Notes: generated by a model not told the origin, from the letters alone. A DNA stretch of 48,482 nucleotides from an uncultured Verrucomicrobiota bacterium (GCA_903826865.1 CAIKGD010000078.1:1-48482); one strand, 5' to 3'; positions 12,373 to 46,674 are shown, counted from the first letter of the stretch. Translations and numbers: made by a program.

Positions 12373-12378
12373 AACGGG

Positions 12379-15417: not shown

Positions 15418-15433
15418 AAACTGGAGAAAGACA

Positions 15434-16522: not shown

Positions 16523-16524
16523 CC

Positions 16525-19934: not shown

Positions 19935-20020
19935 GAACCGGAACTGTTCGCCGGCTTCGGTCCAGCTGCGCCGACCGGGAGCCGTCAGGTTGCCGGTTTC
20001 CAGCAGCAGGGGTTTTGTGT

Positions 20021-20623: not shown

Positions 20624-20759
20624 TTTCAATACCTCCATTGATTTCTCTCTTCATCTCCTGCTGTTCCGTTTTCCAAAGGATCGTCATACCATCGGCATCA
20701 CCTCCCCTGTTTTTCTGCCGCCAGTAAACCGCAGCAACCTTTCGGTATTCTTTCCGCCG

Positions 20760-20793
20760 CATTACAAAGCAGTAATGATTCCGGACATTGACA
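20760..20793 (+). promoter_or_regulatory. Inverted repeat and -35 in the hsp20/two-component divergent spacer
   Basis: CATTAC-AAAGCA-GTAATG (20760-20777) has 6-bp arms and lies 11 bp ahead of TTGACA (20788-20793). No -10 at ideal distance is obvious: TATTAG follows after 14 nt and TAGTTC after 17. The repeat could be the target of the encoded response regulator and serve both directions; this is inference. Confidence 0.35.
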
Positions 20794-20843
20794 AAACAGG
20801 CTCCCGGTATTAGTTCTGAAAGCGGTTTGCAAAGGAGAACGCT

Positions 20844-25885: not shown

Positions 25886-25961
<76 letters not shown>

Positions 25962-26004: not shown

Positions 26005-27129
26005 TTATTTTTGTTTTTTACAACCGGCTGTAGAATCCAGAATCTCCAGACAGGGAATCAGGCGCACCTGACAGGACGCGACAGACTGCGAATTGCGATC
26101 CGGACTCGCTAACCGTTCGATAATGATCCGTCCGGCCTCCACACCCATTTTCCATGGATCCTGACGAATAGTCGTCAGCGGCGGGACAACCAGTCTGCTC
26201 CAGCTCAGCCCGCCGTATCCTATGACAGACAAATCATCTGGAATGATGAGCTCCATCTCCGCAGCTATCTTGTAAACCGAAGGAGCAAAACTGTCGTCTG
26301 CCAGAAATATGGCGGTAATATCTGAATTTTCCTGCAAAAGTTCCTGCGCAGCACGCGTACTTCCCTCATACTGACCGACCTCAACCGTCGTGCAATCCGC
26401 TCCGGCTTCGCGGATAATTTTTTCAAAAACTTTCCGCCGTTTCGCGTAGGTTCCATAGCCTTGATAGCCGGCGATCTGACCGATCTGGCGATGCCCTAAA
26501 GAAAGCAGATGTTCTGCCGCCATTCTGCCGCCCGCCGTTTCGTCTGTGCCGACAAAATCGGCGTGCGTATGAGAAGCCAAACGGTCTATGGTTACCAGAG
26601 GAATACCCCGTTCCCATACTTCATTGAAATAGATATCCGCAACTTTGTCATCTCGCGGACAAACAATCATGCCGTCCACCCGATGATCGAGGAGGTTATG
26701 AATCACCTCCAGCTCTGTACGTTCCCCCGGAGCCGGCGGACGGTCAGGATGGGAAGGCAGCCAATCCATCAACGGCAGCAGCCCTTTGGCCTGCAACCCT
26801 TCCTGAATACCCAGCAACATCTGAGATGACCACTCGTTGCCGGGCTTCATGACAACCCCCACCATTCCGGAGCGCCCGGTCTGAATGGCACGAATCAGGT
26901 TGTTCGGGCGGTAGCGCAATTCCTTGGCAACTTCCAGAATACGCCGACTGGTTTCTCCTGCAACCAGTGAACTGTTGCGAAGCGCCAGCGAAACCGTATT
27001 AATGGAGACTCCCACCCTTTCAGCAATATCTTTCAGGCTGGATTGGCGCGATTGAGAAATGTGGCCTTTTTCAGCCCCGGATGTTTTTCCGCCGCCTGTT
27101 TTTACCTGAACGTGCTGCTTTTTATTCAT
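26005..27129 (-). CDS. LacI-family transcriptional regulator
   Basis: This protein has 374 residues. An unusual 30-residue basic extension precedes the helix-turn-helix SLKDIAERVGVSINTVSLALR (about 31-51) and hinge helix RYRPNNLIRAIQTGRSG. The periplasmic-binding-like sensor has DGMIVCPRDD, IPLVTIDR and a C-terminal VPPLTTIRQDPWKMG. LacI proteins repress or activate sugar-use genes in response to a sugar-like ligand. It is the last gene of the sulfatase/glycosidase cluster, 105 bp after the GH42-like gene, and is the likely controller of that cluster. The perfect palindrome at 46476 is its best candidate operator. Confidence 0.92.
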   Translation of the reverse strand: MNKKQHVQVKTGGGKTSGAEKGHISQSRQSSLKDIAERVGVSINTVSLALRNSSLVAGETSRRILEVAKELRYRPNNLIRAIQTGRSGMVGVVMKPGNEWSSQMLLGIQEGLQAKGLLPLMDWLPSHPDRPPAPGERTELEVIHNLLDHRVDGMIVCPRDDKVADIYFNEVWERGIPLVTIDRLASHTHADFVGTDETAGGRMAAEHLLSLGHRQIGQIAGYQGYGTYAKRRKVFEKIIREAGADCTTVEVGQYEGSTRAAQELLQENSDITAIFLADDSFAPSVYKIAAEMELIIPDDLSVIGYGGLSWSRLVVPPLTTIRQDPWKMGVEAGRIIIERLASPDRNSQSVASCQVRLIPCLEILDSTAGCKKQK

Positions 27130-27234
27130 GCGGCATTTTTAGCACAGACCAAGACACTTCGTCCAGAATAGATGCAACCGGACCTTTGCGCCCGATTGTA
27201 AAAAACCGGTTCGCTTCAACCCGTTGAGGGTGTT

Positions 27235-29346
27235 TTAAAATACCAGCTCAATCATCTGATGCCCCTGCATCCGCTCAATCGGAATCTGCACGGCACCATT
27301 ATGCTGATTAAAGGCCATGGCTGTTTTTTGCGGAACGCCCCGGACGGAAACAACCGGACGGTCTTCTCTGACTGTTACCGTGAAGCCTCCGATCGGAACT
27401 GTTTCCTCAACTATTTCCAGCTTTTCACCCCGGCGTTCCGGGATGTAGTAGAGCAAATGAAGCACGTTGCGGTTTTCCTGCGGCTGCTCGTTATACGTCA
27501 CCAGCAAGTTGTGCGGCCCGGTATGTGAAACAACCGGCGGCCCTATCAGCAATTCAATGGCATTCCACAGCAACTGTCTGCACCACAAGGGGGAATTGAA
27601 TGCATAAATCCGTGCCAGCGGATGGCAAAAATAGATCGCATTGCCGTTGCGCACCGCCGCCGGACGCCCCGATTTCCCGGTGGATGGAGTCTGAAGATGC
27701 GAGCAGTAATGCCGCCAGTCACGGTCGAAATACGACTCAATCGCGGTCAAAAGCACTTTCGCCCCGGATGAAGCCTCTATATCCAATCCGCGCAGATACA
27801 TTACGTGTTCCGTTTCAGGCAGATTCTTTCCAATTTCACCGGAAGGGATAACATAGTCCGTGTAATTATTGTTGAAAAACCAGCGTCCACGGGCCGGTTT
27901 TTTATCTCCGTCTTCAAAAACGGGCCCGTCTCCGGTTTTACGGATCCCCAGCGACTTGACCAGAAAATCATTTTTCCCGGAATCCAGCCCGGACTCAAAC
28001 GAAGCAATCAGCTTGCCACCGTCCGCAACATAGGCATCCAGTCTGGCGGCAAATGATCCCGTCGCGGGGATGCTGTCAGGCAGAATCAACAGTTTGTACT
28101 TTGAGAAGTCCGCTTCGCGGTCAATGAGGTCGAACTGATGTGCACCCTCCTGGAGCATACGGACAATCCCGCTCATTTCAGGGGGGAAATTAAATACCGT
28201 AGAAACTCCGGCTTTGGGCGTTTCGTCATCATAGATTCCGTCTTCGGGATGCAGCACGCCGATTTCCGCAACCGGACTGGAGGGATAACACCACGGCTCT
28301 TTTTCCGCGATGGAATTATATATCCTGCCGATCAAGTCATACGTTACCGGACATATTTCCCCGGACGGGTGCAGCTGGTCGCCGATTGAACACTTTGCTC
28401 CGACAGCCAGCATCCGGAAGCATTCGTACTCTAGTGAGGCCTGCGGTTTAAAGGAATGAAAATCCCCCCACATGGAATGAAACTTGCCGGTCATGCCGAG
28501 AAACTCTTTGCCCAGTGTGCGGACATACCGCGCGGTAACAGGAAAATGAATATATCCCCAAGGTCCGCTGCCCTGCGACTCGATTTCGAAGTGAGAATAG
28601 CAATCCAGCATCCGGCGATGATGACAGGAAATATGCCCGGAGTTGTAGAAAAGAGAACAATCCCGGCTGAACGAGCGTACATGAGCCGTCATGGCAGACG
28701 TAAATTCCTCAATCACAGTCCGGCCGAACCGGCAGCGCTCATAATCATCAGACGGATCAAGTCCGCGCTCCATCATCTGCGACCGGGTCCACTTGCTGGA
28801 ATCATCCAGAGGAATAACAATGTCAAAGAAAAGTCCATCAACAACCGGAACCGACGTGAACAGGTCATTAACGATTTCTTTCAGGAAATCAAAATAGGGT
28901 GAATTGACCGCCAGAAGATGTCCAAACCCCGCTTCATACGGCTTGTTTTCAATAATCCGTCCGGTGCGGTCCATAGCCAGCCATTCCGGATGCTCGCGGG
29001 CGGTTAACTCGTCCAGCTGAACGGTTAAATAGATCGGGGTTCTGATGCCCCGCTTCCGGCAGGCTTCAATCTGTTCCACCAGCATATTTCTATGAACCAG
29101 CGTTGGATGCACCCGTTCCGGAAACCGCTTGCTGTCGTAGTAGAGATACCCATGATGGCACCGTGCGAAAAGCGTTACGGAATTCACTCCGGCGCGCGCC
29201 AGAGTGCCGGCAAAATTATCTGAATCAAACCGCTCTCCAACCGCCGGGATCCATTCTGCGGTGTGAAAATCCATATGAATCTGCCGGGAGGGAAGCCGGT
29301 TTTTTGTACAAATCTTCTTCTCTGGTTTCTTCATATTTACTTTCAT
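27235..29346 (-). CDS. GH42/GHL-like glycoside hydrolase with beta-galactosidase trimerisation-type domain
   Basis: This protein has 703 residues. The N-terminal TIM barrel begins RQIHMDFHTAEWIPAVGERF and continues with VNSVTLFARCHHGYLYYDSK, then RGIRTPIYLTVQLDE and VDGLFFDIVIPLDD. From about 365 a glutamine-amidotransferase-like fold (VAEIGVLHPEDGIYDD, then YKLLILPDSIPATGSFAARL, then YVADGGKLIASF) matches the beta-galactosidase trimerisation domain, and a beta-sandwich ends the chain. No signal peptide is evident, suggesting cytoplasmic action on imported sugars. Its ATG abuts the stop of the upstream gene with no spacer and there is no strong Shine-Dalgarno. The exact family and substrate are not assignable; catalytic acids were not identified. 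Confidence 0.65.
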   Translation of the reverse strand: MKVNMKKPEKKICTKNRLPSRQIHMDFHTAEWIPAVGERFDSDNFAGTLARAGVNSVTLFARCHHGYLYYDSKRFPERVHPTLVHRNMLVEQIEACRKRGIRTPIYLTVQLDELTAREHPEWLAMDRTGRIIENKPYEAGFGHLLAVNSPYFDFLKEIVNDLFTSVPVVDGLFFDIVIPLDDSSKWTRSQMMERGLDPSDDYERCRFGRTVIEEFTSAMTAHVRSFSRDCSLFYNSGHISCHHRRMLDCYSHFEIESQGSGPWGYIHFPVTARYVRTLGKEFLGMTGKFHSMWGDFHSFKPQASLEYECFRMLAVGAKCSIGDQLHPSGEICPVTYDLIGRIYNSIAEKEPWCYPSSPVAEIGVLHPEDGIYDDETPKAGVSTVFNFPPEMSGIVRMLQEGAHQFDLIDREADFSKYKLLILPDSIPATGSFAARLDAYVADGGKLIASFESGLDSGKNDFLVKSLGIRKTGDGPVFEDGDKKPARGRWFFNNNYTDYVIPSGEIGKNLPETEHVMYLRGLDIEASSGAKVLLTAIESYFDRDWRHYCSHLQTPSTGKSGRPAAVRNGNAIYFCHPLARIYAFNSPLWCRQLLWNAIELLIGPPVVSHTGPHNLLVTYNEQPQENRNVLHLLYYIPERRGEKLEIVEETVPIGGFTVTVREDRPVVSVRGVPQKTAMAFNQHNGAVQIPIERMQGHQMIELVF

Positions 29347-32172
29347 TCAATTATTCTGCTGCCCGACTGATATTTTCAGACGGACAAATCCGGATTCGCC
29401 GGCTTGAATCCGATTGGTGACGTTTTCAAAACTGCTGTCGATAATCCCCGTACCGGTTTCGGCGATCCCGCTGGTGCTCCAGCCGGAGGAAAGCAGATTG
29501 GTGACAGCTTCCACTTTATAGGCGAGGCTGCGAGCCGTCGCATCGCGGCGGCGGCGATAAATGTATTCGAAACCCTGCCCTGCTGCATTGGTGCCGGACA
29601 GGTTTGCAATGTTTGGAAACTTTTCACGGTCTGCCGGGATCGGGTTTCCAACGTTTGCAAACGTTCCGAAGGCGTATTCGAGAAGGTTGTCTTTTCCGTC
29701 GCCGTCCGGGTCGCTTGAATAATTTTGATTGGTTGAACTCAGCCCCTGGCCGGTCAGCCATTCATTGAAATAGTTCGCGCCAATACCGGAAATGGATGCG
29801 GTGCGGTGTTCGATATCCAGAATGACATCAAGATGCTCAAAGGAGCGGGTGTAGACCCAGCCTGTACGGACCGCATCGCCCAGCGGCCTGCCAAGCGGCA
29901 TGCGGTATTCCGGAAAATCAGCCAGACTGCCGTAGTTTTCGGTGTAACCCCAGGAATAGCAGAAATAGCTGTAGGGCTGAGCGGAAACCAGATAGCAGGC
30001 CAATGAAAAGGCGATTTTATTACGCGCTTCGATGCACAGATTCTCATACGGTTCGGCCATTTTTGCTGTATTCAACGAGGTAAAATCGGGATCCGGCCAG
30101 CCTTTAACGATAACCATCTTGCCGGATTTTCCGACACTGCTGATGGTATCCATATCACGGGCGATTGTTTCTTTGTTGGTGCAGGCAAACGCAGTGAAAT
30201 GCTCAACCATCACTCCGTCCGCATGCGGCAGATATTCGAGCCCCGATGTTGTGTCGCCGTTCAGCGAGCGGAACCCGTTGTAGATGACGATGGCGTTGGT
30301 TCCCATTTCAACCTGCGCACGATCCAGCTGGTCGCAGGTCGCATTGACCAGATCAGATGTCGTCGCCGGAGCCCAGTACGGCAGCAGCACGGAACGAACC
30401 GGCTGCATCACAGCATCCGCAAAAACTCCGTTGCAGCTGTATTGCGCAGTCCCTTTCCCTGCCTGCTGCGCCCACCATTGGCGGAAACTTTCATTGAGAA
30501 TATTATACTGTTCAACCGTTGTGTCTGTTTTGTAAACCGGCACGCCGTTGGTATTGCGCAGGATCCATTCCGGGTGCAGGGCCGCGTCTGAGCAGGCGCT
30601 ATAGAACGGGTAATTTAAAAATGAATTCCAGTAGTAAAGAATTTTCATGCCGGGGTTGGCTGCTTTGAGCCGGGCCGCGTCATTGGAAATACCTGCCTCA
30701 GTCGATCCGAACTGCAGGCGGGCATGCCCCTTTTCCAGACAGACAAAATCGGACGTGGCGGCAACAAAAGCCACCTCCGCATCGGTCAGCGCCGCTTTGG
30801 ATTTCCCGAAGTGAATATAGACGGGAATGGTGTCCCATGAAAACGGCGGATACTTCGGATGCTTTATGACATTAATGGTCATGGTCGCCTGATTGGTTCC
30901 GCCGGCACCGTCGGACATTTGAACAGTGAATATATTCAGTCCGAAATCCCCGCCAGCGGGCACTCCGGAAAGCGTTCCGCTGGACGAAACAGATAGCCAG
31001 TCCGGGCCGGATATTTTTGAACACTCAACCGCTCCGCCCGGAACGGCGTTGCTTTCGGGAATTACGGCGGAATAATTCAGATAAACCACCGCATCGGGCA
31101 TATGAAGGTTTTCCGGTAAAACGGCGAGCTGTATCCAGTCCCTGCCATCAGTCTGATCCTGCACAAGAAAAGTCATGAGCGACGGATCAAATCCGGCAAC
31201 TGAAATATTCGTGATACCGGCCAAACTGTGCAGATCGACTGAATCAAACAGTGTATAGACGCCGCCTGTTCCGCTGTAGGCCGAGCCGTCCACCGCCAGC
31301 CTGACTCCGGAAAGATCCAGCCGGTTTGTGACATGAACCGTGCTGATTCCGTTTGTATTAAAAACGAACCGGAATATCCCGTTGGTCGCGGAGGCAGTCT
31401 GGCAATTCAGCGTATCTATGATAATTGAAGACCCGTCCCCGACCACCCGGAATTCAGCCGGGTTCTGGCCTCCATTGGATCCGACTTTAACTTGAGCATC
31501 CAGATTCACCATGCCGCCACTCACCTCAAAAAGACCTGTGTTCAGATCGAGTGAATCATTCATCAGTGTGCCGGTGATATTTATACTGCCCGAGGATAAC
31601 CTGACGGTTCCCAATCCGCTGATAGTCAGGGTTTTGTTGCTGAATACACTGCTCAGCGTACCGCCCTTCACATCAACCAGCCCGCCTTTGTTTACCAGCA
31701 ACGCATCGCCCATGCTCAGCGTACCACCCGTCAGATTGTAGATTCCGTTCGTCCCGGCAGACGTTGGATTGCCTACTGTATTGGTAGCAAACGAAACCGT
31801 CCCGGCAGACTGGTTTACCACTCCGGTCCCCGTGGAACCGGAGGCCACCTGAATCACCGGAACCGTTAGGGTGCCGGAACTGATAACATTTACGATGCCC
31901 GGATTTGTATTATTCACAACTTGCAATTTGGCAATCGTTGCGGATGTGTCGAGCGTTACAGCCTGATTGTTATTTATGACCACCGTATTTGTCGCCGCCG
32001 GAAAAACCGTAGATGCAGAATAGTCCGGGCCGCCGGTGCTGCTGCTGTTATCCTTCCACCGCGAAAGATCAGACCAGTTTCCGCTCCCTCCGACGCGAGT
32101 ATACGAGACCGCCGCCGGTCCGGTCGTGCTCAGCCCGGCAAATATCAGCAACAGGTATAGAGTTCTTTTCAT
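29347..32172 (-). CDS. Secreted beta-helix / Ig-like / GHL15-like multidomain protein
   Basis: This protein has 941 residues. A signal peptide (KRTLYLLLIFAGLSTTGPAA) precedes a repetitive Ser/Thr/Gly/Asn region (about 25-300) of the autotransporter-adhesin type, with repeats such as GIYNLTGGTLSMGDALLVNKG. An Ig-like cadherin-type module follows (DWLSVSSSGTLSGVPAGGDF, about 390). Residues about 445-790 resemble the putative glycosidase GHL15 (YIHFGKSKAALTDAEVAFVA, then MKILYYWNSFLNYP, then FADAVMQPV). The C-terminus has DPDGDGKDNLLEYAFG, a Verrucomicrobial C-terminal module. A surface-bound glycan-acting enzyme is inferred. Its start is 11 bp after the sulfatase stop, and its stop abuts the next start. 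Confidence 0.7.
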   Translation of the reverse strand: MKRTLYLLLIFAGLSTTGPAAVSYTRVGGSGNWSDLSRWKDNSSSTGGPDYSASTVFPAATNTVVINNNQAVTLDTSATIAKLQVVNNTNPGIVNVISSGTLTVPVIQVASGSTGTGVVNQSAGTVSFATNTVGNPTSAGTNGIYNLTGGTLSMGDALLVNKGGLVDVKGGTLSSVFSNKTLTISGLGTVRLSSGSINITGTLMNDSLDLNTGLFEVSGGMVNLDAQVKVGSNGGQNPAEFRVVGDGSSIIIDTLNCQTASATNGIFRFVFNTNGISTVHVTNRLDLSGVRLAVDGSAYSGTGGVYTLFDSVDLHSLAGITNISVAGFDPSLMTFLVQDQTDGRDWIQLAVLPENLHMPDAVVYLNYSAVIPESNAVPGGAVECSKISGPDWLSVSSSGTLSGVPAGGDFGLNIFTVQMSDGAGGTNQATMTINVIKHPKYPPFSWDTIPVYIHFGKSKAALTDAEVAFVAATSDFVCLEKGHARLQFGSTEAGISNDAARLKAANPGMKILYYWNSFLNYPFYSACSDAALHPEWILRNTNGVPVYKTDTTVEQYNILNESFRQWWAQQAGKGTAQYSCNGVFADAVMQPVRSVLLPYWAPATTSDLVNATCDQLDRAQVEMGTNAIVIYNGFRSLNGDTTSGLEYLPHADGVMVEHFTAFACTNKETIARDMDTISSVGKSGKMVIVKGWPDPDFTSLNTAKMAEPYENLCIEARNKIAFSLACYLVSAQPYSYFCYSWGYTENYGSLADFPEYRMPLGRPLGDAVRTGWVYTRSFEHLDVILDIEHRTASISGIGANYFNEWLTGQGLSSTNQNYSSDPDGDGKDNLLEYAFGTFANVGNPIPADREKFPNIANLSGTNAAGQGFEYIYRRRRDATARSLAYKVEAVTNLLSSGWSTSGIAETGTGIIDSSFENVTNRIQAGESGFVRLKISVGQQNN
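29650..29665. repeat. Perfect 16-bp palindrome inside a coding region
   Basis: AACGTTTGCAAACGTT is fully symmetric. It lies in the C-terminal linker codons of the beta-helix/GHL15-like gene, next to TTTCC and GGAAAC segments that recall the TTCCAA/TTGGAA repeat family. Confidence 0.4.
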
Positions 32173-32183
32173 CCAGGAATATT

Positions 32184-33893
32184 CTATTCCTTTTTCCCTG
32201 CGTTGACGAATTCCTGCTCAGTCAATTTCCCATCTTTATTGGTGTCAAACGAATCATACTTCTGCCGCAAAGAAGCTGCCGCGTCGTCCTTGCGGTTCCC
32301 CAGATATTCCGCAAAAGACATAAATCCGTCGCGATCCGCATCGAGTTTTTTGAAAAGGTCTGCGCGGGCAGCAGACTGATCCTGAGCGGGGGCAGACGGG
32401 CTTTTTTGAGCCTTCACCGCCGAAACAGATCCGGCAGCAGCCGTTGCGGAGCGCTCCTGCCCGTCTACCGTGAGCCGCGAGGGAATCGTTTTCGGCAGAG
32501 TTTCAATCCACTGCTCTACCGCCCGGAGCATCGTTTTCATGCGCTCAGGTTCCTGTGCAGACAAATTGTTTTTCTGGTCGCGATCAGCGATTACATCGTA
32601 CAGCTCAATCCGGCTTCTGTCTTCGCTCGTCAAAAAGACCCACCGCCCGTCACGCATTGCATAGGCCGGCCAGTCATCACCGCTATGTCCTCCGCTCCAT
32701 TTCCAGAAAAGCGGTTTAGAACGTTCCATCGGAGTGCCGAACAGTGCCTGCAGCATATTTTCACCGTCGCTCTGATAACCGACTGGCAGTTGTTCAACTC
32801 CGGCCGCAGCGGCCAGCGTGGGCAGCATATCGACAGCTGAAATCATCGTGGTTTTATCAATCTTTCCGGCGGGAACGTGCCCCGGCCAGCGCACGAGAAA
32901 AGGTGTGCAGACTCCGCCGCTGTAGAGACTGCGTTTCTGTCCGCGCATTCCTCCGGTAACACCCCGGCTGTAATATTGCATTTTTCCATGATCCTCAGAC
33001 GAATGCTCCGGCCCGTTATCACTGGAGAAGACCACAATCGTGTTATCCCTCAACCACAGCTCATCCAGCTTCTTGAGAACGAGGCCGATCTGTGTGTCCG
33101 CCCGTGTTACCGCCGCATAATAGGTCTGCTCCGGCTCCGGAACATCTTTGTAGGGGATGCGGTCTTCCGGACGCGCTAAAGTCAGGTTATGCGTTTCCAT
33201 AATCCATAAATTGATAAAAAACGGCCCGTTTTTATTCGCTTCGATAAACTTAAGCGTGTTCTCAACCGAAGCGATTGTGAGATAGGCTGCTGCCGGACTT
33301 TGATGCGGCTCGCCCTTTTCAGCTTCCACCGAAGTCCCGTCGAAGACGCTGCGTGTATCGGGGCCGGCCCAGGCGAAAACGGCCGCGTCGTCATAACCGT
33401 AAACCGGGTATTGAGGGGCGCCCTGTCCGGCCCCGGCAAGCGAAAGATGCCATTTGCCGTAGTGAGCCGTCGCGTATCCGGCCTGCTTCAAAATTTTAGG
33501 CAACGTCACCGCTTCGGGATCAAGCCAATCCGGCATACCCCTCTTCTGATTTTCTGCGGGCGATGCAAAATGCTGATGCACACCGAACCGGGAAGGAAAA
33601 TTTCCGGTCAGCAAAGCAACCCGGCTCGGCGAGCAGACCGGATTATTGACTGTAAACTGGTAAAAATTCATTCCCTCCGAAGCCAGCTTATCCAGATTCG
33701 GGGTCAGAATATTTTTATTTCCGTTCACCGCCAGATCTCCCCAGCCGAGATCATCCGCATAAATAAATACGATATTCGGACGGGCATCCTGCGGCGGAAC
33801 CGCTGCGGCGGAACCTCGCGCTGCCAGCGCCAGCATCGAAATGCCCGCCGAACTCTTCACCCAAAACTGTTTTCTGCTTTTCTGTTGCATCAT
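32184..33893 (-). CDS. FGly-dependent sulfatase with C-terminal EF-hands
   Basis: This protein has 569 residues. An export signal of weak Tat style (SRKQFWVKSSAGISMLALAA) is followed by the alkaline-phosphatase-fold sulfatase: RPNIVFIYADDLGWGD (metal aspartates 47-48), the CSPSR site with Cys87 to be converted to formylglycine, GKWHLSLAG and SSDNGPEHSSEDHG. After about 480 come two EF-hand-like loops, DADRDGFMSFAEY and DTNKDGKLTEQEF, probably binding calcium. The start overlaps the stop of the GH106-like gene by four bases (ATGA) with AAAGGAG ahead. It removes sulfate esters from a glycan; position specificity is unknown. Confidence 0.9.
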   Translation of the reverse strand: MMQQKSRKQFWVKSSAGISMLALAARGSAAAVPPQDARPNIVFIYADDLGWGDLAVNGNKNILTPNLDKLASEGMNFYQFTVNNPVCSPSRVALLTGNFPSRFGVHQHFASPAENQKRGMPDWLDPEAVTLPKILKQAGYATAHYGKWHLSLAGAGQGAPQYPVYGYDDAAVFAWAGPDTRSVFDGTSVEAEKGEPHQSPAAAYLTIASVENTLKFIEANKNGPFFINLWIMETHNLTLARPEDRIPYKDVPEPEQTYYAAVTRADTQIGLVLKKLDELWLRDNTIVVFSSDNGPEHSSEDHGKMQYYSRGVTGGMRGQKRSLYSGGVCTPFLVRWPGHVPAGKIDKTTMISAVDMLPTLAAAAGVEQLPVGYQSDGENMLQALFGTPMERSKPLFWKWSGGHSGDDWPAYAMRDGRWVFLTSEDRSRIELYDVIADRDQKNNLSAQEPERMKTMLRAVEQWIETLPKTIPSRLTVDGQERSATAAAGSVSAVKAQKSPSAPAQDQSAARADLFKKLDADRDGFMSFAEYLGNRKDDAAASLRQKYDSFDTNKDGKLTEQEFVNAGKKE

Positions 33894-37882: not shown

Positions 37883-37908
37883 TTTCTGATTTCCTTTTGA
37901 GGTGTGCA

Positions 37909-40900
37909 TCACAGCTCGATTTTTTTCACTTCCGCCGCCTGAATCGTCACCGGCCCGATCAGCCCGGAGGGGAGCAAAGGATCGTCCTTTTTCCAGAGTT
38001 TCCAGGTCGTGAACGTGTAGCGGCCGGTCGGGTCGGGTTTTCCTTCAGTTAACCACGCAGGCCAGTTCTTGAGCGATCCGTCCGGCGCGCGGCTGCTGTC
38101 ATCCGCCAGCTGGTCGTCACCGATCAGACGGTTGACCCAGAGATTAACGACCTTAACTTCCAATGTGTTCTCGCCAACCTGAAGCGCTTCCGTTATATCC
38201 GCAAGAAATGGCGGTTTCCAGAGAACGCCGAGTTTCCTGCCGTTAAGGATAACCTCGGCCATTACTTCCACTCTGCCTAAATCAAGAAACACTCTGGATT
38301 CCTGACTCCGGACTTCCGATTTGAACGTCGTGCGATAGACTGCGGTTCCGCTGTAGTAATGAATGCCTGGTTCAGTACGCTTGCTCCAATCTTCGAGCCG
38401 GTCAAATGCAACGGGCGATTCCGGACCGCCGGACTCCGGATCGAAACGAACTTCCCAAGATCCGGCCAGCTCCTGTGCCGGCGGCAGAGCAGGAACTTCG
38501 CAGTGCAGCGTGCGCCCCGAAGCGGTCTTCAGTTCATATTGCCCCGGCTGCCGCGCCTCCACCGTGATCCCGCCGGAAGCATTGCGCCGCAGGTCAACCC
38601 TTGAGTCTGCGGCAACGTTCGTCACAGCAGATGCAGGAAAAATTGAACGTCCGTTATGCATAACGGCGACGACCGGATCCGTGCCCTTTGCAACCGGATG
38701 GAACACAATAAACACGGATTCAGCCGGGCCGAGCCGCAACGGCACACGCGTGACGTCGCCTGCCTCACTGAAAACCGCAACCGGTTCAATGCGCCCGCTC
38801 TCCGCCTGCCAGAATTCCGGCTGTTTTCCAATGACGCGGAATGCAGCGACCGCCTCCACATTGGTTTCCGCCGGATTAGAAACAAAATAAATATCCGTTT
38901 CGCCGTCGCGACGATGGATGCAACGGAGGTTTTTATCCGCCGCGAAATCGGGTGAAATCTTCATTCCGGCAAGAACTTCCTCCGCCGTCTTTCCGGTCAA
39001 TATCCGCCCGGATTTCCACAGGTCATCCGCAATCTTCTTTACCTCGGCATCGCATTCCGGGTAACCGCTCAGGCCGGGTGCTTTGACCGGTTTCGTTGTT
39101 CCGATCACCGTTGCACCGCCGTCGGCGAGCTCTTTAATTTTACGCAGCAGCTGCGGTGTCATAGTGTCCGTGGCGGATGGCAGCACCAGCACCCGGTAGT
39201 TCATTCCGTCAGACATCACAATCCGGCCGTCCTTCACCGACATGCGCGTCAAGACGGCCTCGGCCGGACACAAATCGAAATTGTAACCGGGTCTCGTATG
39301 CGGATCGGTTCCCGGTTTCGGCTTCACATTGAAAGAATTCGGTGCGCTTTCAGATTGGAGGTAACAGATATCGGCAACGAAAAGGCCCTGACGGAGCAGG
39401 TACTGGCAGCGGGCCAGATACTCATGCCACGGCTTTGACCATTCCCACCACGTCTGCGTCCGCTCGTAATGCAGACCCCACGGGCCCATACTCACACCGG
39501 GAACGCGGGATGGATTTACCCACGGCTGGAGTGCGTACCGGTGAATGACAAACCGGTTAATACCTTCGCAAAAAGCCCAGTCGGCGATGCCCTTGACATT
39601 GCCCGGATGGCTGAGCCACTTTTCGCCGTTATTGGATGTGAGGGCTTCCGCACTCACAATCCGCTTGCCGTATACGTGGGCCGATGAAGACATCCGCGTG
39701 ATGCTGCTGGCAAACGCTAATTCCGGCCGGGCCCAGAACTCGCCCATCGGTTCGTCGGTCCGCCCTCCGCAGGCCAGATTGTCAAACAGATCGGTTCCAT
39801 ACGCCTCCATCGAAAAATACATCCCGTTCCGGTTCGCCAGGGTGCGCAGATGTCCGGCATAATTGTCCAATACCATTTCGGAAATCGTCCGACGCATATC
39901 CCATAAAAACCGCTCGGAAACCTCCAAACTGTCCACCACATGACCGTCCGTCACCGGCAGGAACGGCAGCAGATCGTAGCCGCGCCGCCGCTGAAATTCC
40001 TCGCGCATCCGCGGCGTCCAGTTTTGCGAGCCGACTTCCCAGCTGTCAACATGGGTTGCCGCGAGGGTTTTACCGGCAAGCGGTTTATTGCCGTCAATCA
40101 CTTTCGCCATCAGGCTGTTAAAATGTGTCTCAACGGCTTCTTTGCTGAGTTTATCGCATTCCAGACCGCGGCCGGACATCGGCGCAGGATTGTTTTCCTT
40201 TCCGGCAGCCGTATGCCCGATACGCAAAACGGTCCATTTGCCGGGCGGCGCATCCCATACCAACCGGCCGTCTGTATCCACCCTGCCCGTCAGGTCAACG
40301 ATTCGTCCGCGCGGAATTACCAGTTTCCCCGGCAGCGCCGGAAACACCGTCGGCGATTCAAAATTCCTTTTGACAAATGCCGCCTTTCCTTCGATGCCAT
40401 CGATGCGGAAGCCCGGGCTGAGTCTCACGTCCGAAACAGTCAGTTCTTTGCTCGCTTTATGAGCACCGGTGAACACAACGCGGAAAAACCGTGCCGACAC
40501 TTCATCAAACGACACCGTGGCCGAAGTCAGATACGCATCAAATTCACGAACTGTCCTAAACGTCTGCCCGTCGTCGGAAACCTGCAATCTGGCGTGTGCG
40601 GAATGCTCCGACCAGCCGATGAAATTCAGTGTCAGTGAGCGGGCGGTAAACGGCTCCGGAAACGCCATCTGCACCCATTGCGGATGTGCGTCATCCGGTT
40701 TCGGCAACGTAATGCTTGTAGAGGGATCGCCATCCATCAGTATCCGTCCGTCGACCCCGGGCTTTCCGGAACTGACTGAAATCTCCGGATTGGCTCCGGC
40801 GGCCTTCACATCATCGCCGTCAGCGGTCGGGAACGCCAGCACGGCAATGTCCCGGTAAAAGTTCGTTGCCGCCGTCAGCTGCGGCCGCCATCTCAGCGGT

Positions 40901-41379
40901 GAAACAACGGCCGGCGGCGGCTGAGGCAACAGGTCATTAAACTTTTTCGGCCCCTCGACAAACGTTTCGCTCATTGTGAGTACCTGCATGGAAAGTTCCG
41001 GTGTGATCCACGGCCCGCCGCTGCCGCACCAGCCGGCATCGTTATTCATGTTGATTGCCAGCCCGAGCCGGTTCGCTTCATTGCAGGCGTGCTTGATCAG
41101 ATCGCGCCAGAGCGGCCCGGCAAAATCGGCCGGGCCTGCCGGTGTACCCTGATTCACTTCCATGTAAATAACCCCGCCGATGCCGACGCGCGCCATTGCT
41201 TCAAGATCGGCGGTAATACCTTCCTTGCTGAGGTTTCCGTTGAGCGCTATCCAATAGACCCACGGTCTGGCCGAATCGGGCGGAGACAAAAATCCCTTTT
41301 CAAGCGTATCGGCGGCTTGAATGTGTGTTCCGAAAAGTACGGAACAAATGAGTATAAGTAGGACGGTTGCATTTTTCAC
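37909..41379 (-). CDS. GH106-like glycosidase (alpha-L-rhamnosidase family), paralogue 2
   Basis: This 1156-residue protein has a GTG start preceded by AGGAGAACCCG. The signal peptide is almost identical to its neighbours (MKNATVLLILICSVLFGTHI). Family motifs are ALNGNLSKEGITADLEAMAR, DSWEVGSQNWT (Glu about 447) and SAEALTSNNGEKW (Glu about 577), with RTDEPMGEFWARPE between them. A C-terminal module has GVLWKPPFLADITE and NLWVNRLIGDDQ. The first hallmark has WIALNGN where the others have WMNGN, a possible specificity change. It lies 15 bp after paralogue 3 and 26 bp before paralogue 1. Confidence 0.86.
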   Translation of the reverse strand: MKNATVLLILICSVLFGTHIQAADTLEKGFLSPPDSARPWVYWIALNGNLSKEGITADLEAMARVGIGGVIYMEVNQGTPAGPADFAGPLWRDLIKHACNEANRLGLAINMNNDAGWCGSGGPWITPELSMQVLTMSETFVEGPKKFNDLLPQPPPAVVSPLRWRPQLTAATNFYRDIAVLAFPTADGDDVKAAGANPEISVSSGKPGVDGRILMDGDPSTSITLPKPDDAHPQWVQMAFPEPFTARSLTLNFIGWSEHSAHARLQVSDDGQTFRTVREFDAYLTSATVSFDEVSARFFRVVFTGAHKASKELTVSDVRLSPGFRIDGIEGKAAFVKRNFESPTVFPALPGKLVIPRGRIVDLTGRVDTDGRLVWDAPPGKWTVLRIGHTAAGKENNPAPMSGRGLECDKLSKEAVETHFNSLMAKVIDGNKPLAGKTLAATHVDSWEVGSQNWTPRMREEFQRRRGYDLLPFLPVTDGHVVDSLEVSERFLWDMRRTISEMVLDNYAGHLRTLANRNGMYFSMEAYGTDLFDNLACGGRTDEPMGEFWARPELAFASSITRMSSSAHVYGKRIVSAEALTSNNGEKWLSHPGNVKGIADWAFCEGINRFVIHRYALQPWVNPSRVPGVSMGPWGLHYERTQTWWEWSKPWHEYLARCQYLLRQGLFVADICYLQSESAPNSFNVKPKPGTDPHTRPGYNFDLCPAEAVLTRMSVKDGRIVMSDGMNYRVLVLPSATDTMTPQLLRKIKELADGGATVIGTTKPVKAPGLSGYPECDAEVKKIADDLWKSGRILTGKTAEEVLAGMKISPDFAADKNLRCIHRRDGETDIYFVSNPAETNVEAVAAFRVIGKQPEFWQAESGRIEPVAVFSEAGDVTRVPLRLGPAESVFIVFHPVAKGTDPVVAVMHNGRSIFPASAVTNVAADSRVDLRRNASGGITVEARQPGQYELKTASGRTLHCEVPALPPAQELAGSWEVRFDPESGGPESPVAFDRLEDWSKRTEPGIHYYSGTAVYRTTFKSEVRSQESRVFLDLGRVEVMAEVILNGRKLGVLWKPPFLADITEALQVGENTLEVKVVNLWVNRLIGDDQLADDSSRAPDGSLKNWPAWLTEGKPDPTGRYTFTTWKLWKKDDPLLPSGLIGPVTIQAAEVKKIEL

Positions 41380-41394
41380 CGGGTTCTCCTGTCG

Positions 41395-44300
41395 TTACAG
41401 TTCAATTCTTTTTACTTCAGTCGCCTGAATCGTCACCGGTCCGAGCAGTCCCGACGGAACCGGCTTGTCCTCTTTATTCCAGTGATGCCATGTGGCAAAC
41501 GTAATGCGCCCGGTATCCGGAACAGGGCCGCCGTCCTTCACCCAGTCCGGCCATTCGAGCGGAGCCCCGGCATCAAATTTTCCGGTGCTTTTCCACGTCA
41601 AATACGGCTGCTTGAATTCGTCACCGATAAGCCGGTTGATCCAGAGATTCGTCACGCGGATTTTCAGCGTGTTTTTCCCCGGTTTCACCAGCGCGGTGAT
41701 GTCGGTTTTGAACGGCGGCTTCCAGAGGATTCCCGTATCTTTGCCGTTCACGTTCACTTCGGCGATGACTTCGACCCGGCCGAGGTCAAGCGATAGTTCG
41801 ATGTCTTTCTTCACCATGTTTGCCGGAATATCTATTTCCTTTGTATAGGTTGCGCTGCCGGAAAAATATTTGATCCCCTCTTCCGGATGTTCCGGCCACG
41901 AAATCAGTTTTTCAAATGTTGCTGACGGCGGGGCGCCGAGCTTCGGCGGGAAGGAAACGTTCCACGGCCCTGTCACGGTCAGCGGTGCCGGAACGCCGGT
42001 GACTTCAACGGACTTTGTTCCCGCTGCCGACGTGACTTCATAACGGCCGTTTTCACTGGCAACCAGTTCTGCGGCCTTGGGCCATACGCGGATTTGGGCA
42101 CCGGCTGCTCCGGTAAACGCGGTAATTTCCGGCAAGCCTGTTTTGCGGAATACGACGAACACCGAGCCGCACGGATCAAATTTAATGGGCACTGTCGTGC
42201 GACCGTTCTCCGTTTTCCAGACGCCGACGGTTTCGATGCGCCCCGTGTCCGGATACCAGAATTCCGGAACCTTGCCGGTAACGCGGAAGGTTGCATCAAC
42301 CGTTACCGGGATATTCGTTTCGCTGGCGACAAAATAGACTTCTGCATCGCCTGCGCGCCGGTGAATCCAATTCACTTTCGCTGTACTTCCAGTGGATTTG
42401 CACTCGAAATCAGGCGCAAGGCCGATTGCGGAAAAAACTGCCGGCAGCGGTTTGCCCCAAAAAACTCTGCCTTTCCCGTACGAATGTTCCTGCTTCGTTT
42501 TCCCATCGCAATCGCCCCAAACCTCTGCGGCGATGGTCTGCACTTCTTTATCGCACTTCGGATAATCCAGCAGACTGGGTGATTTCGCCGGTTTCGGGCC
42601 GAGGACAACGGCGCCATCGCGAACCAGCTCGCGGATTTTGCGCGCCACAGCAGGTGTCATAAACACACCTTCGGACAGCACCAGTACCCGATACTGCATG
42701 CCGGACGGAAGATGGATGATCCCGTCCTGAACCGTCATCGTCAGCAATATTCCGCTGTTCAAATAATCATAGCCGTAACCGTCAAAGATTATGTTTTTTG
42801 CCAGATGAGGAAGATTCGGTTCGTCCTCACTAAGCAGCACGCAGCAATCGGCAGCAAACAATCCTTCCTGCAGTATATACTGACAACGGGAAAGATAGGA
42901 AAGCCATGCGCTGCCCTGTTCGAACCAGGTGGTTGTTTGATTGAGATGAATTCCGTACGGACCGAACGTCATGCCGGGCAGGCGGTTCGTCCACGGCTGC
43001 TGGGCCCAGGCGGAAATAACAAAGCGATTGATGCCGCCCGCATACACTTTGTCGCCGAGCGCCTTGATGGCGAAGGGATAATCCCGCCATCCCGCATCTT
43101 GAAGACCGGCGGTGAACGCTTCTGCGGCAATGTATTTCCGTCCGACGGCATGCGCCGCAGACGGGGCGACTTTGAGGCCGGCGTTCATACCAAGTTTGCC
43201 GACCCAGAACTCGCCCATCGGCGTATCGGTGCGGGTCATACACTGAAAATCGTCAAAGTTTCCGTGGTAGGCCTCAGCTGAAAGCGCAAGGCCATGCTTT
43301 TTCGCCAGCGTTCGCAGATAACCATAGTTGTTGTCGGCGATCAGATCGGAACAGGTTTTGCGGAAATCCCAGAGAAACCGCTCGCTCACTTCGGGGGATT
43401 CGACCGGATAACCGAATGCGACGGGCAGCAGCGGGAGCGGATCGTATCCGCGGCGTTTCTGGAATTCCTCCCGGAATTTCGGTGTCCAGTTCTGCGGGCC
43501 TTCCTCCCACGAATCAATGTGCGTGGAAACAATCGTTTTCCCGGCCAGTGCCCCGGCATTATGAAGCATCTTTCCGAGAAATCCTTCAAAATGGATATCC
43601 AGCGCCTCCCGGCTCATTTTATCACACTCGAAGCCGGTGCCGTTCGGCGTGCACGGATGCCCGACTTTGCCCGTCGTCGTGTGCCCGACGCGAAGAATGG
43701 TCCAGTTCCCTGCCGGCACGTCCCATGTGAGCGTGCCGTCCGCCGCCAGCGATTTCGTAATATCAATAATGCCGTCGCGCTGGACGGCCCCGGGATACGG
43801 GAACCAGTTCGTCTCAATCATGACGGAACTGTATCCCGACACGAATCCCGCCTTGTAGCCCCATTTAGGAACCTGCAACCCGCGGTGCAGTTCAACCTCC
43901 GTGATGTCCATTTTTCCAGGCAACTTCACTCTGGGATCCGCCTTTGTGAAGACAAGCCGGTAAAATTTTCCCGAAACCGGGGGAAACGCAATTTCGGTCT
44001 TCGAAGCATCCTGTCTAGTGATGCGGATGGCTATTTTTGTTACACTGGTGTAGGTGATTCCATCAGCGGAAACCATCAGTTCGCCCGAATCCGCCTGCGC
44101 CCCCGGCCCTGTATTTGCGGTAAGCGCCTGCGCAGTAAAGGGCTCAGCGAATTCAAACTGAATAAACTGCGGCCTGCCCGGTTCCGGCAGCGGAAGCGGT
44201 GAACCGGTCCCCTTGCTGCCATCAATAACTTTTGCGCCTTCAAATTCCGGATCGCTGCCGCTCACCGCCGGTGCGCATTCGCGCATCGGCATGGCGTCAC

Positions 44301-44853
44301 CTTCCGGTGACCGGAATGCAAATATTGCGATGTCGCGGTAATACGGAACCGGTGCCGATCCGCCTTCTGCAATCTCGGCCTTGTTGGCCGGTGGTAAAGG
44401 CAGTTTCCTCGCATACTTGCAGGGCCCGGCAATGCGCGTCTTGCTTGAGGTAAGAGTCTGCATCGAATGCTCAACGGTATTCCACGGGCCGCTGCTTCCC
44501 GACCAGCCGTCCGCATTGTACAGAGTAATTTCGATACCCAGCCGGTCCGCTTCGCGCACCGCATGCAAAAACAGCGCGTTCCATTCGTCCGTCAGAAAAT
44601 CCACCCGTCCCGGAGGAATGAAGGCCGACACGCTCATAAGCAGCACGCCGCCGATGCCGACGCGATGCATCGATTCAAGGTCGTCCGTAATGCCTTCTTT
44701 CGTGAGGTTGCCGTTCATCCACATCCAGTACACCCAGGGTTTGGCGGAATCGGGCGGAGTTTTAAATCCCTGTTCCAGCACGCCGGCGGCACGAACGTGT
44801 GTTCCGCAAAGCATGGAACAGATGAGCATCAGTATTAAGGTTGCGTTCTTCAC
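41395..44853 (-). CDS. GH106-like glycosidase (alpha-L-rhamnosidase family), paralogue 3
   Basis: This 1152-residue protein has a GTG start and GGAAG nine bases ahead. The signal peptide is MKNATLILMLICSMLCGTHV. Motifs are WMWMNGNLTKEGITDDLESM, DSWEEGPQNWT (Glu about 449), RTDTPMGEFWVGK and AAEAFTAGLQDAGW (Glu about 577). The central galactose-binding-like part has ALTANTGPGAQADSG, and the C-terminal sandwich has GILWKPPFKTDITA and NLWINRLIGDE. All expected catalytic positions seem intact. It is the first of the tandem paralogues in transcription order, 25 bp after the sulfatase. Confidence 0.86.
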   Translation of the reverse strand: MKNATLILMLICSMLCGTHVRAAGVLEQGFKTPPDSAKPWVYWMWMNGNLTKEGITDDLESMHRVGIGGVLLMSVSAFIPPGRVDFLTDEWNALFLHAVREADRLGIEITLYNADGWSGSSGPWNTVEHSMQTLTSSKTRIAGPCKYARKLPLPPANKAEIAEGGSAPVPYYRDIAIFAFRSPEGDAMPMRECAPAVSGSDPEFEGAKVIDGSKGTGSPLPLPEPGRPQFIQFEFAEPFTAQALTANTGPGAQADSGELMVSADGITYTSVTKIAIRITRQDASKTEIAFPPVSGKFYRLVFTKADPRVKLPGKMDITEVELHRGLQVPKWGYKAGFVSGYSSVMIETNWFPYPGAVQRDGIIDITKSLAADGTLTWDVPAGNWTILRVGHTTTGKVGHPCTPNGTGFECDKMSREALDIHFEGFLGKMLHNAGALAGKTIVSTHIDSWEEGPQNWTPKFREEFQKRRGYDPLPLLPVAFGYPVESPEVSERFLWDFRKTCSDLIADNNYGYLRTLAKKHGLALSAEAYHGNFDDFQCMTRTDTPMGEFWVGKLGMNAGLKVAPSAAHAVGRKYIAAEAFTAGLQDAGWRDYPFAIKALGDKVYAGGINRFVISAWAQQPWTNRLPGMTFGPYGIHLNQTTTWFEQGSAWLSYLSRCQYILQEGLFAADCCVLLSEDEPNLPHLAKNIIFDGYGYDYLNSGILLTMTVQDGIIHLPSGMQYRVLVLSEGVFMTPAVARKIRELVRDGAVVLGPKPAKSPSLLDYPKCDKEVQTIAAEVWGDCDGKTKQEHSYGKGRVFWGKPLPAVFSAIGLAPDFECKSTGSTAKVNWIHRRAGDAEVYFVASETNIPVTVDATFRVTGKVPEFWYPDTGRIETVGVWKTENGRTTVPIKFDPCGSVFVVFRKTGLPEITAFTGAAGAQIRVWPKAAELVASENGRYEVTSAAGTKSVEVTGVPAPLTVTGPWNVSFPPKLGAPPSATFEKLISWPEHPEEGIKYFSGSATYTKEIDIPANMVKKDIELSLDLGRVEVIAEVNVNGKDTGILWKPPFKTDITALVKPGKNTLKIRVTNLWINRLIGDEFKQPYLTWKSTGKFDAGAPLEWPDWVKDGGPVPDTGRITFATWHHWNKEDKPVPSGLLGPVTIQATEVKRIEL

Positions 44854-44878
44854 TTTTTAATCTTCCAGTTGTTTATTC

Positions 44879-46366
44879 TTAATAAACCAGTCTGGCATCA
44901 CCGCCATGCTTGATCATTTGCGGATATGTTTTATCCCACCAGACATCATAGGCTGCCGCCATCCGCTGCGCGAGTTCAGGCATCTGAGCGGCAATATTTT
45001 TCTGACAGGCAGGATCGGCGAACACATCATAAAGTTCCCAGCCTTTAGTAAGACCCCATAAAAACTGTGCATTGGTCGTTGTATATGGCGCACTGACCGC
45101 TCCCTGCTGAATCCGCAGGAGATTGTTGTTGGAGGCTTGCGGCTCAGCGGCGCTGAGCCCTTGAGGATCGGCAGACGGTTCGCGCCGGGCCAGCAGATAG
45201 TTTTTCCAGCGCACGGCGGCTTCGGTATATTTGCTTAGCGCGGCCATGCCGCCGGCCCATCGTCCGACATGTTTAAACACCATCCGGTCAGTCCACGGAA
45301 CCGTTCCCCCTTCCAGCAAAGGAATCAAACTGTATCCGTCTTTTTCGGACTGGAATTCTCCGGGCAGCGCAACTCCTGTAAGATCACAAAGCGTAGGCAG
45401 TACATCCACCGCATCGGCCAGCACATCAATATTGTGCGGCGTCCAATGTCCCGGCCAGCGCCAGAGCGAGAACGCGCGGAATCCGCCGATCCACGATGTG
45501 CATTTGCATCCGCGCATTCCGGCATTGTAGGTGTCCACGCCATAGGTTCCGCCGTTATCGTTCATTAGAATAACAACCGTATTGCTGCTCAGTCCCAGTT
45601 CATCCAGACGGGCCGTCAGGCGTCCGATATTTTTATCGACATTGGCCACCATTCCGTAAAACACAGCTGTTTTGTCGTTCACTTTGCCCCGATACGGCGC
45701 GATATCCTCTTCGGGCACGCGCAACGGATCGTGCGGCGACCAGGTGGCGAGATAGCAGAAAAACGGACGTTCCCTGTTTTCGTCGATAAAACGAATAGCC
45801 TCGGCAAAAAGCACATCTTCACGGAATCCCTGACCGGCTGTCTTCTTCCCGTTGCGGCGGACGACCGGGTTGAAAAACCCTTTTTCGCTCTGCGGATCTT
45901 CCAGTGACACGTCATAATCAAATCCCCGGCCTTTCGGGCTGTATTCCGGCCCGTCGCCCATGTGCCATTTTCCAAGATGCGCCGTAACATAGCCGGCCTG
46001 CTTGAGAAACTGCGGAAGAATAGTGCGTTCTTTCGCCATATGCTCGCGCGGCGGAATCGTATGGGTCACGCCGGACCGGAACGGATACATTCCGGTCATC
46101 AGAGCCGTGCGGGACGGTGCACAGGCGGTTTCCACGCAAAAGTTATCGAACCGCACACTTTGGTCATACAGACGATCCATATTCGGTGTTTTAATCACCG
46201 GATTGCCGGTGCGTCCCAAATCGCCATAACCCTGATCATCCGTAAGAATGAAAACGATATTCGGTTTTTGTGATTCAACTGCAAAGGAATGACCCGCCGC
46301 GCCCAAACCGGCCAACCCTGTAAGAAGGAACTGCGCTGTTTTACCCGAGGCCTTTGTTTTTTTCAT
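44879..46366 (-). CDS. FGly-dependent sulfatase, first gene of the cluster
   Basis: This 495-residue S1-type sulfatase has a signal-like N-terminus (TAQFLLTGLAGLGAAGHSFA), KPNIVFILTDDQGYGD (metal aspartates 43-44), CAPSR with Cys82 as the formylglycine precursor, LGKWHMGDGPEY and ILMNDNGGTYGVD. A stretch near residue 405 (DPQGLSAAEPQAS) is encoded by a perfect DNA palindrome (45141-45159), perhaps an inserted repeat. It is the first gene behind the palindromic operator and promoter at about 46480-46507. It needs a formylglycine-generating or anaerobic maturing enzyme, not found in this window. Confidence 0.9.
   Translation of the reverse strand: MKKTKASGKTAQFLLTGLAGLGAAGHSFAVESQKPNIVFILTDDQGYGDLGRTGNPVIKTPNMDRLYDQSVRFDNFCVETACAPSRTALMTGMYPFRSGVTHTIPPREHMAKERTILPQFLKQAGYVTAHLGKWHMGDGPEYSPKGRGFDYDVSLEDPQSEKGFFNPVVRRNGKKTAGQGFREDVLFAEAIRFIDENRERPFFCYLATWSPHDPLRVPEEDIAPYRGKVNDKTAVFYGMVANVDKNIGRLTARLDELGLSSNTVVILMNDNGGTYGVDTYNAGMRGCKCTSWIGGFRAFSLWRWPGHWTPHNIDVLADAVDVLPTLCDLTGVALPGEFQSEKDGYSLIPLLEGGTVPWTDRMVFKHVGRWAGGMAALSKYTEAAVRWKNYLLARREPSADPQGLSAAEPQASNNNLLRIQQGAVSAPYTTTNAQFLWGLTKGWELYDVFADPACQKNIAAQMPELAQRMAAAYDVWWDKTYPQMIKHGGDARLVY
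45141..45159. repeat. Perfect inverted repeat inside the sulfatase gene
   Basis: GGCTCAGCG-G-CGCTGAGCC has 9-bp arms around one base. It lies in a poorly conserved region of the sulfatase between LLARREP and NNNLLRI, and resembles the small GC palindromes elsewhere in the window. Confidence 0.5.
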
Positions 46367-46475
46367 ATTTTCAACCCTCTGCCCTTCGGTTTCTGTAATT
46401 TCTGCGATATTACGGCTTTACCGACGACTCCGTCACTCCTGTTCCGCAAAAGACATATGTCGCTTAAATGCCTTG

Positions 46476-46491
46476 TTATTAGTACTAATAA
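46476..46491. promoter_or_regulatory. Perfect 16-bp palindromic operator candidate
   Basis: TTATTAGTACTAATAA is fully symmetric. It overlaps a candidate -10 (TACTAA on the minus strand, 46484-46479) that lies 17 nt from a TTGACC -35 (46507-46502). It is 110 bp ahead of the sulfatase start. Symmetry and position fit a LacI-type repressor site. Confidence 0.6.
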
Positions 46492-46674
46492 ATACAGCTC
46501 CGGTCAATTGATTTCTCGACTCCGTATTCAATGCAAGTCTGTATAAAGAGAACACAGACATGACCAGAAGAACGGTTTTTGCAGACACGGCACAGACTAT
46601 ACCGGTGAACGTGAATTTTCCACGCCATTGAAGCGTTTAAAACAATGCGGCAGGTATTTCCGGCCCCCGTCTAT

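What the first reader, a model, noticed from the sequence alone, without database searches (positions are those of the whole stretch)
26005..46510. Single-strand sulfatase/GH106/GHL15 cluster as a SusCD-free glycan-degrading locus
Eight genes (two sulfatases, three GH106-like glycosidases, a surface beta-helix/GHL15 protein, a GH42-like enzyme and a LacI regulator) run on one strand. Junctions are overlapping, abutting or under 30 bp, except before lacI. Sulfatases with alpha-L-rhamnosidase-family enzymes suggest a sulfated 6-deoxyhexose polymer (ulvan-like, fucoidan-like or a host or algal mucilage). There is no SusC/SusD, so uptake and surface capture must work differently; the beta-helix protein may provide the surface handle. 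Seen: gene order and motifs. Inferred: substrate.
Basis: partly seen in the sequence, partly recalled or inferred. Interest (0 to 1): 0.65.

Follow-up and report, generated by a model that had tools for sequence, protein, structure and literature searches.

The report
LacI-controlled sulfated fucan/rhamnan degradation operon
A bacterium that lacks the usual sugar-capture pair SusC/SusD carries an eight-gene, probably LacI-controlled set of sulfatases, an endo-fucanase, a fucosidase and three distinct rhamnosidase-family enzymes for dismantling a sulfated fucose/rhamnose polysaccharide; loci of this kind are known in its relatives, but the control site and the way the gene set grew between two sister species can be read off and tested.

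Summary
The eight-gene, single-strand cluster (26005-46366) is real. Family searches confirm three GH106 proteins, two S1-type sulfatases and a LacI regulator, and sharpen two calls: the 'GH42-like' enzyme is a GH151 alpha-L-fucosidase and the 'GHL15' domain is a GH168 endo-fucanase, both with catalytic residues conserved. SusCD absence is real (no SusD in the genome) but normal in this phylum and already published. Additions here: (1) A sister species has the orthologous SulfA-SulfB pair only 13 bp apart with no GH106 between them, plus GH141, a LacI ortholog and L-fucose isomerase nearby, so the GH106 trio is a lineage-specific three-gene block. (2) The three GH106s belong to three deep clades, not one tandem duplication. 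(3) A palindrome, TATTARTAYTAATA, lies 109 bp upstream of the operon and upstream of two further orthologous operons in both species (one encoding an MFS_2 sugar transporter). It is absent from five sampled genus members, which also lack a close LacI ortholog: a candidate LacI regulon. Best reading: a LacI-repressed operon that desulfates and depolymerises a sulfated fucose/rhamnose polysaccharide outside the cytoplasm and trims fucose inside it. Enzyme families are shown; substrate, transcription and LacI binding are inferred. Testable, moderately novel.

The parts
46476..46491 (.). perfect 16-bp palindrome TTATTAGTACTAATAA, candidate LacI operator, 109 bp upstream of the operon's first start codon
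   Evidence: conserved upstream of the orthologous operon in sister species G003
44879..46366 (-). SulfA, S1-type formylglycine sulfatase (signature C82-A-P-S-R), signal peptide
   Evidence: 79% ortholog in G003
41395..44853 (-). GH106c, alpha-L-rhamnosidase-family exo-enzyme, signal peptide
37909..41379 (-). GH106b, alpha-L-rhamnosidase-family enzyme of a second clade, signal peptide
33890..37912 (-). GH106a, alpha-L-rhamnosidase-family enzyme of a third clade with a LamG insert (945-1094); likely true start ATG at 37882
32184..33893 (-). SulfB, S1-type sulfatase (signature C87-S-P-S-R) with C-terminal EF-hands, signal peptide
   Evidence: 80% ortholog in G003
29347..32172 (-). modular GH168 endo-fucanase: signal peptide, beta-repeat module (1-360), Ig-like (365-435), GH168 catalytic domain (440-794), C-terminal domain with DPDGDG motif
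27235..29346 (-). GH151 alpha-L-fucosidase, no signal peptide (cytoplasmic)
26005..27129 (-). LacI-family regulator, 77% ortholog in G003 with nearly the same DNA-binding domain
25886..25961 (+). tRNA-Lys(CTT) bordering the locus; no second copy of its 3' end found in the window
46711..47673 (-). HAD-family hydrolase upstream of the operon; ortholog also flanks the sulfatase operon in G003 (89%)

Best explanation
The cluster is a SusCD-free catabolic operon for a sulfated polysaccharide containing L-fucose and, most likely, L-rhamnose. LacI holds the promoter off by binding the palindrome at 46476-46491 (inferred). On induction the exported sulfatases SulfA and SulfB remove sulfate esters, the exported modular GH168 endo-cleaves the fucan backbone, and three exported GH106 enzymes of different clades remove rhamnosyl units of different linkage. 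Small fucosylated products enter through an inner-membrane transporter, a candidate being the MFS_2 protein in a co-regulated operon on contig C4. In the cytoplasm GH151 releases fucose. Shown: gene order, families, catalytic residues, export signals by sequence, conservation of the palindrome, orthologous operons. Inferred: substrate, co-transcription, LacI binding, transport.
For: Families and catalytic residues: GH168 has all seven residues reported as conserved in the family (E480, K481, Y514, N516, D586, N632, E657; list in PMC10778895). GH151 keeps the nucleophile, acid/base and complementing His of ALfuk2 (D175, E256, H550). GH106 keeps the two Glu motifs HIDSWE-type and PMGEFW. Both sulfatases have C-X-P-S-R. 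Fucose context: GH141 and L-fucose isomerase beside the orthologous sulfatases and LacI in G003. Rhamnose context: GH106-rhaA-aldolase-FGGY kinase, and rhaM-AraC-GH106, elsewhere in the genome. GH168 loci of the phylum carry a sulfatase within about 10 kb in 27 of 34 cases, against 8 of 80 GH106 loci (different samples). One other class member combines GH106, sulfatases, GH168 and a sodium:solute symporter (L131). Regulation: exact TATTARTAYTAATA occurs 6 times in 364 kb of G000+G003 stretches and not at all in 864 kb of comparison stretches, in three pairs of orthologous operons (the C4 member of one pair has one mismatch); genome-wide it is absent, one mismatch allowed, from five other genus members; LacI ortholog 77% in G003, at most 40% elsewhere in the genus.
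Against: No expression or biochemical data. GH106 characterised members are rhamnosidases, but specificity of these clades is untested. Sulfatase subfamily could not be assigned; best PDB matches are carrageenan sulfatases of modest similarity. No transporter lies inside the cluster. Promoter and terminator scans were not above chance. LacI is separated by 105 bp and may be transcribed on its own. Five genomes without the site is a small sample, and the 864 kb comparison set was not matched for base composition.
Confidence: 0.72

Rival explanations
1. The target is pure sulfated fucan (fucoidan type) and the GH106 enzymes act on fucosidic or other linkages rather than rhamnose.
For: GH168 and GH151 are fucose enzymes and the sister species has only fucose-type partners (GH141, FucI) at the same sulfatases; the three GH106 clades are deep and largely uncharacterised.
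Against: GH106 genes in the same genome sit directly beside rhaA, a rhamnulokinase-like kinase and rhaM; no characterised GH106 fucosidase is known to me.
Confidence: 0.2
2. The locus degrades ulvan or another sulfated rhamnan, with fucose enzymes as accessories.
For: Three rhamnosidase-family enzymes with sulfatases.
Against: The only backbone (endo) enzyme is GH168, whose tested members FunA and FWf5 had narrow specificity for fucans and were not promiscuous towards ulvan (PMC10778895); no polysaccharide lyase lies in the cluster.
Confidence: 0.08
3. The locus recycles the cell's own sulfated deoxyhexose-containing envelope or exopolymer, not an external algal glycan.
For: The same contig carries GDP-mannose 4,6-dehydratase and fucose pyrophosphorylase-like genes, and Pontiella strains make sulfated exopolymers (PMC7356697).
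Against: The hydrolases are accessory: most genus members lack GH106 and GH168, and the genome has about 40 sulfatases, which fits foraging better.
Confidence: 0.1
4. The cluster is a mobile island inserted at tRNA-Lys.
For: tRNA-Lys ends 43 bp from the lacI stop; synteny with G003 breaks there, HrpB and HAD being 317 kb apart in G003.
Against: No repeat of the tRNA 3' end elsewhere in the window and no integrase family hit among the scanned genes; sulfatases, LacI and HAD are orthologous and syntenic in G003.
Confidence: 0.07

Closest known systems
SusCD-free fucose/rhamnose PUL-like loci of Verrucomicrobiota (Orellana et al., PMC8857213; Lentimonas fucoidan work cited there)
   Same: sulfatases with fucosidases and rhamnosidases, no SusC/SusD, putative sugar transporters as substitutes
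   Different: GH168 and GH151 instead of GH29/GH95 in the cluster, three GH106 genes in a row, LacI with a conserved operator-like site; no bacterial microcompartment shell genes found in this genome
Fucoidan-degrading Pontiella desulfatans and P. sulfatireligans (PMC7356697)
   Same: same order by inference, very rich in sulfatases and fucosidases; P. desulfatans has 56 rhamnosidase genes
   Different: much larger genomes; this genome is 2.64 Mb with about 40 sulfatases
GH168 endo-fucanases Fun168A/FunA, FWf5, MeGH168 (PMC12210190, PMC10778895)
   Same: catalytic domain and active-site residues
   Different: FunA and FWf5 have only signal peptide and catalytic domain; here the domain is fused to a beta-repeat module, an Ig-like domain and a C-terminal domain
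GH151 fucosidase ALfuk2, PDB 6TVK (PMC10154630)
   Same: full-length homology, catalytic pair and complementing His
   Different: found inside a sulfatase operon; substrate untested

Membership tests
Bacteroidota-type polysaccharide utilization locus | SusC/SusD-like pair | tested here: not met
   No SusC- or SusD-like gene in the cluster; no PF07980 SusD in the genome. SusC/TonB families were not searched genome-wide.
SusCD-free PUL-like locus of Verrucomicrobiota | co-localised sulfatases and deoxyhexose-active glycosidases without SusCD | tested here: met
SusCD-free PUL-like locus of Verrucomicrobiota | membership of the organism in the phylum or its close relatives | tested here: inconclusive
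GH168 fucanase | TIM-barrel homology and conserved active-site residues incl. nucleophile Asp and acid/base Glu | tested here: met
GH168 fucanase | endo-cleavage of sulfated fucan | not testable with these tools
   needs assay
GH151 alpha-L-fucosidase | full-length homology, Asp/Glu catalytic pair and His from the neighbouring monomer | tested here: met
GH42 beta-galactosidase | GH42 catalytic domain | tested here: not met
   only the trimerisation-like domain matches
GH106 alpha-L-rhamnosidase | Glyco_hydro_106 domain and the two conserved Glu motifs | tested here: met
   assignment of these Glu as catalytic is from memory of the BT0986 work
S1 (formylglycine) sulfatase | Sulfatase domain and C-X-P-S-R signature | tested here: met
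S1 fucoidan sulfatase subfamilies (S1_15/16/17/22/25) | subfamily assignment | not tested
   SulfAtlas not available
LacI-family repressor | LacI HTH plus periplasmic-binding-like domain | tested here: met
LacI-family repressor | binding to the predicted operator | not testable with these tools
   co-occurrence only

The most novel reading that the evidence does not exclude
One LacI-family protein reading TATTARTAYTAATA controls a multi-operon regulon for a sulfated fucose/rhamnose glycan, in which pre-existing sulfatase operons grow by insertion of ready-made hydrolase blocks (GH106 trio between SulfA and SulfB; GH168+GH27 in the GH38 operon; GH168 fused onto a beta-repeat module), with uptake by an MFS_2 transporter in place of SusCD.
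Probability: 0.45. Interest if true: 0.55.

Novelty: new member of a known kind. Interest (0 to 1): 0.42.

Why it matters
How bacteria without SusCD take up and regulate sulfated fucans, a recalcitrant carbon pool, is poorly known. A short conserved operator-like site, one regulator and a sister species with a simpler version of the same operons give a concrete handle: the regulon can be footprinted, the inducer identified, and the effect of the added GH106 and GH168 genes measured. The GH151 and GH168 calls also correct annotations that would read as 'GH42-like' and 'hypothetical GHL15'.

Tried and rejected
The tRNA-Lys island idea was tested by searching for a repeat of the tRNA 3' end (none); an earlier search used a wrongly guessed tail and is void. 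Promoter and terminator scans were at chance level. Bacterial microcompartment genes (PF00936) were sought as the expected fate of fucose/rhamnose in Verrucomicrobiota: none. A single-sequence fold of the beta-repeat module gave pLDDT 50 and was not used for a fold search. A 344-aa G003 protein first taken for a GH168 is only the beta-repeat module.

Full report
WHAT WAS CHECKED. The window is the whole of contig C78 of a 2.64-Mb, 98% complete assembly. All eight ORFs lie on the minus strand at the given coordinates and the junctions are as tight as described, with 105 bp before lacI. One start is probably wrong: GH106a reads better from the ATG at 37882, which has a good ribosome-binding site and restores the signal peptide MKNATVILILICSALFGTHAQA shared in closely similar form by the other two GH106s.

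FAMILIES. Three proteins are GH106 (E about 1e-202 to 1e-210), two are sulfatases with the C-X-P-S-R signature, one is LacI. The 703-aa protein is GH151: it aligns end to end with the alpha-L-fucosidase ALfuk2 (PDB 6TVK, E 1.6e-121). The published nucleophile D154, acid/base E235 and complementing H503 (PMC10154630) correspond to D175, E256 and H550. The GHL15 domain is GH168: residues 440-794 match the solved GH168 enzymes, including Fun168A (8YA6) and MeGH168 (9NHF) (PMC12210190). All seven residues reported as conserved across the family (PMC10778895) are present: E480, K481, Y514, N516, D586, N632, E657. Unlike FunA and FWf5, which have only a catalytic domain, this protein also carries an N-terminal beta-repeat module, an Ig-like domain and a C-terminal domain. 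SulfA, SulfB, the GH106s and GH168 have export signals; GH151 and LacI do not, which puts fucosidase action in the cytoplasm.

SUGAR CONTEXT. Elsewhere in the genome a GH106 gene is followed directly by L-rhamnose isomerase, a class II aldolase and an FGGY kinase (contig C7, L082), and L-rhamnose mutarotase lies next to a GH106 on contig C47 (L076). Contig C9 holds three GH106s, GH95, a GH29-type fucosidase, sulfatases and GH168; contig C20 holds a GH151 and a GH168 paralog. The genome has about 40 sulfatase and 22 GH106 matches, many of the GH106s cut by contig ends.

RELATIVES. In its genus (14 genomes) GH106 is abundant only here, with two clear genes in G001, a doubtful fragment in G007 and none in the rest. 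Across the phylum about half the sampled genomes have GH106, some with more candidates than this one, and GH168 is found in 30 of 388. In the sister genome G003 (HrpB 93% identical) the order is HAD - beta-repeat protein - SulfA (79%) - 13 bp - SulfB (80%) - convergent GH141 - LacI (77%) - L-fucose isomerase. The GH106 trio therefore sits exactly between two genes that are neighbours in G003, and GH168 is fused here to a module that stands alone there. Because most of the genus lacks GH106, gain here is more likely than loss in G003, but direction is not proven. The three GH106s fall in three separate deep clades and holding them together is rejected (p-AU 4e-77). Members of the same clades recur in arrays on C39, C9 and C58, so the block looks like a set of complementary specificities, not gene dosage (inference).

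REGULATION. A perfect palindrome TTATTAGTACTAATAA lies at 46476-46491, 109 bp before SulfA. With TATTAGTAYTAATA and one mismatch, G000 has four places and G003 four, while G013, G002, G001, G011 and G004 have none. In the stretches read, exact TATTARTAYTAATA occurs six times in G000+G003 and not in 864 kb of other sequence. The G003 sites and three of the four G000 sites lie 51-109 bp upstream of a start codon of three pairs of orthologous operons or, in G003, of a PATR/PEP-CTERM gene: the window operon; a GH38-PfkB-MtlD-SASA-sulfatase operon, into which this genome has an extra GH168 and GH27; and an operon with an MFS_2 sugar transporter (91% identical between species) and an EF-hand sulfatase. 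The fourth G000 site (C17) is weaker and lies before a secreted protein of unknown family. The regulator follows the site: the LacI ortholog is found at 77% in G003 and at most 40% elsewhere in the genus, and the two DNA-binding domains are almost identical. This is co-occurrence, not proof of binding.

WHAT IS KNOWN. SusCD-free loci with sulfatases, fucosidases and rhamnosidases are described in Verrucomicrobiota, with sugar transporters proposed to replace SusCD (PMC8857213); a pilus-like attachment system is proposed in Akkermansiaceae (PMC13174399). No SusD and no microcompartment shell proteins were found here. The organism is placed in Kiritimatiellota only by inference: same-order genomes of 8.7 and 7.4 Mb match the Pontiella type strains (PMC7356697), whose sister family is Tichowtungiaceae (PMC10880615).

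VERDICT. Observation confirmed; interpretation partly supported and sharpened. It is a new member of a known kind of locus, with a modular GH168, a three-clade GH106 block and a candidate regulon as its points of interest.

Noticed in passing
L080:4365-4378 (own contig C7) and L241:7862-7875 (G003): The operator-like site also precedes an orthologous GH38-PfkB-MtlD-SASA-sulfatase operon; this genome has an extra GH168 and GH27 inside it that G003 lacks.
   Followed up: yes
L243:3844-11411 (own contig C4): Operator-marked operon with an MFS_2 sugar transporter, an EF-hand sulfatase and an 875-aa secreted protein without Pfam family; its product may be the missing uptake step.
   Followed up: partly
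contigs C7, C8, C9, C18, C39, C47, C58, C70, C74 of G000: Many contigs of this assembly begin or end inside or beside GH106 genes, so similar GH106 copies probably break the assembly and the true count is uncertain.
   Followed up: partly
L061:635-877 (G003): A second partial match to the SulfB C-terminal part follows the end of SulfB, perhaps a duplicated EF-hand tail or a remnant.
   Followed up: no
window 1-3236: Fucose pyrophosphorylase-like, GDP-mannose 4,6-dehydratase and epimerase genes on the same contig suggest that the cell makes GDP-deoxyhexoses itself.
   Followed up: no
window 13999-22899: OEP-HlyD-AcrB efflux operon followed by a response regulator and histidine kinase, just left of HrpB and the locus.
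   Followed up: no
window 12262-13665: 467-aa ORF with no Pfam match but 84% identical DNA in G003: a conserved gene of unknown family.
   Followed up: no
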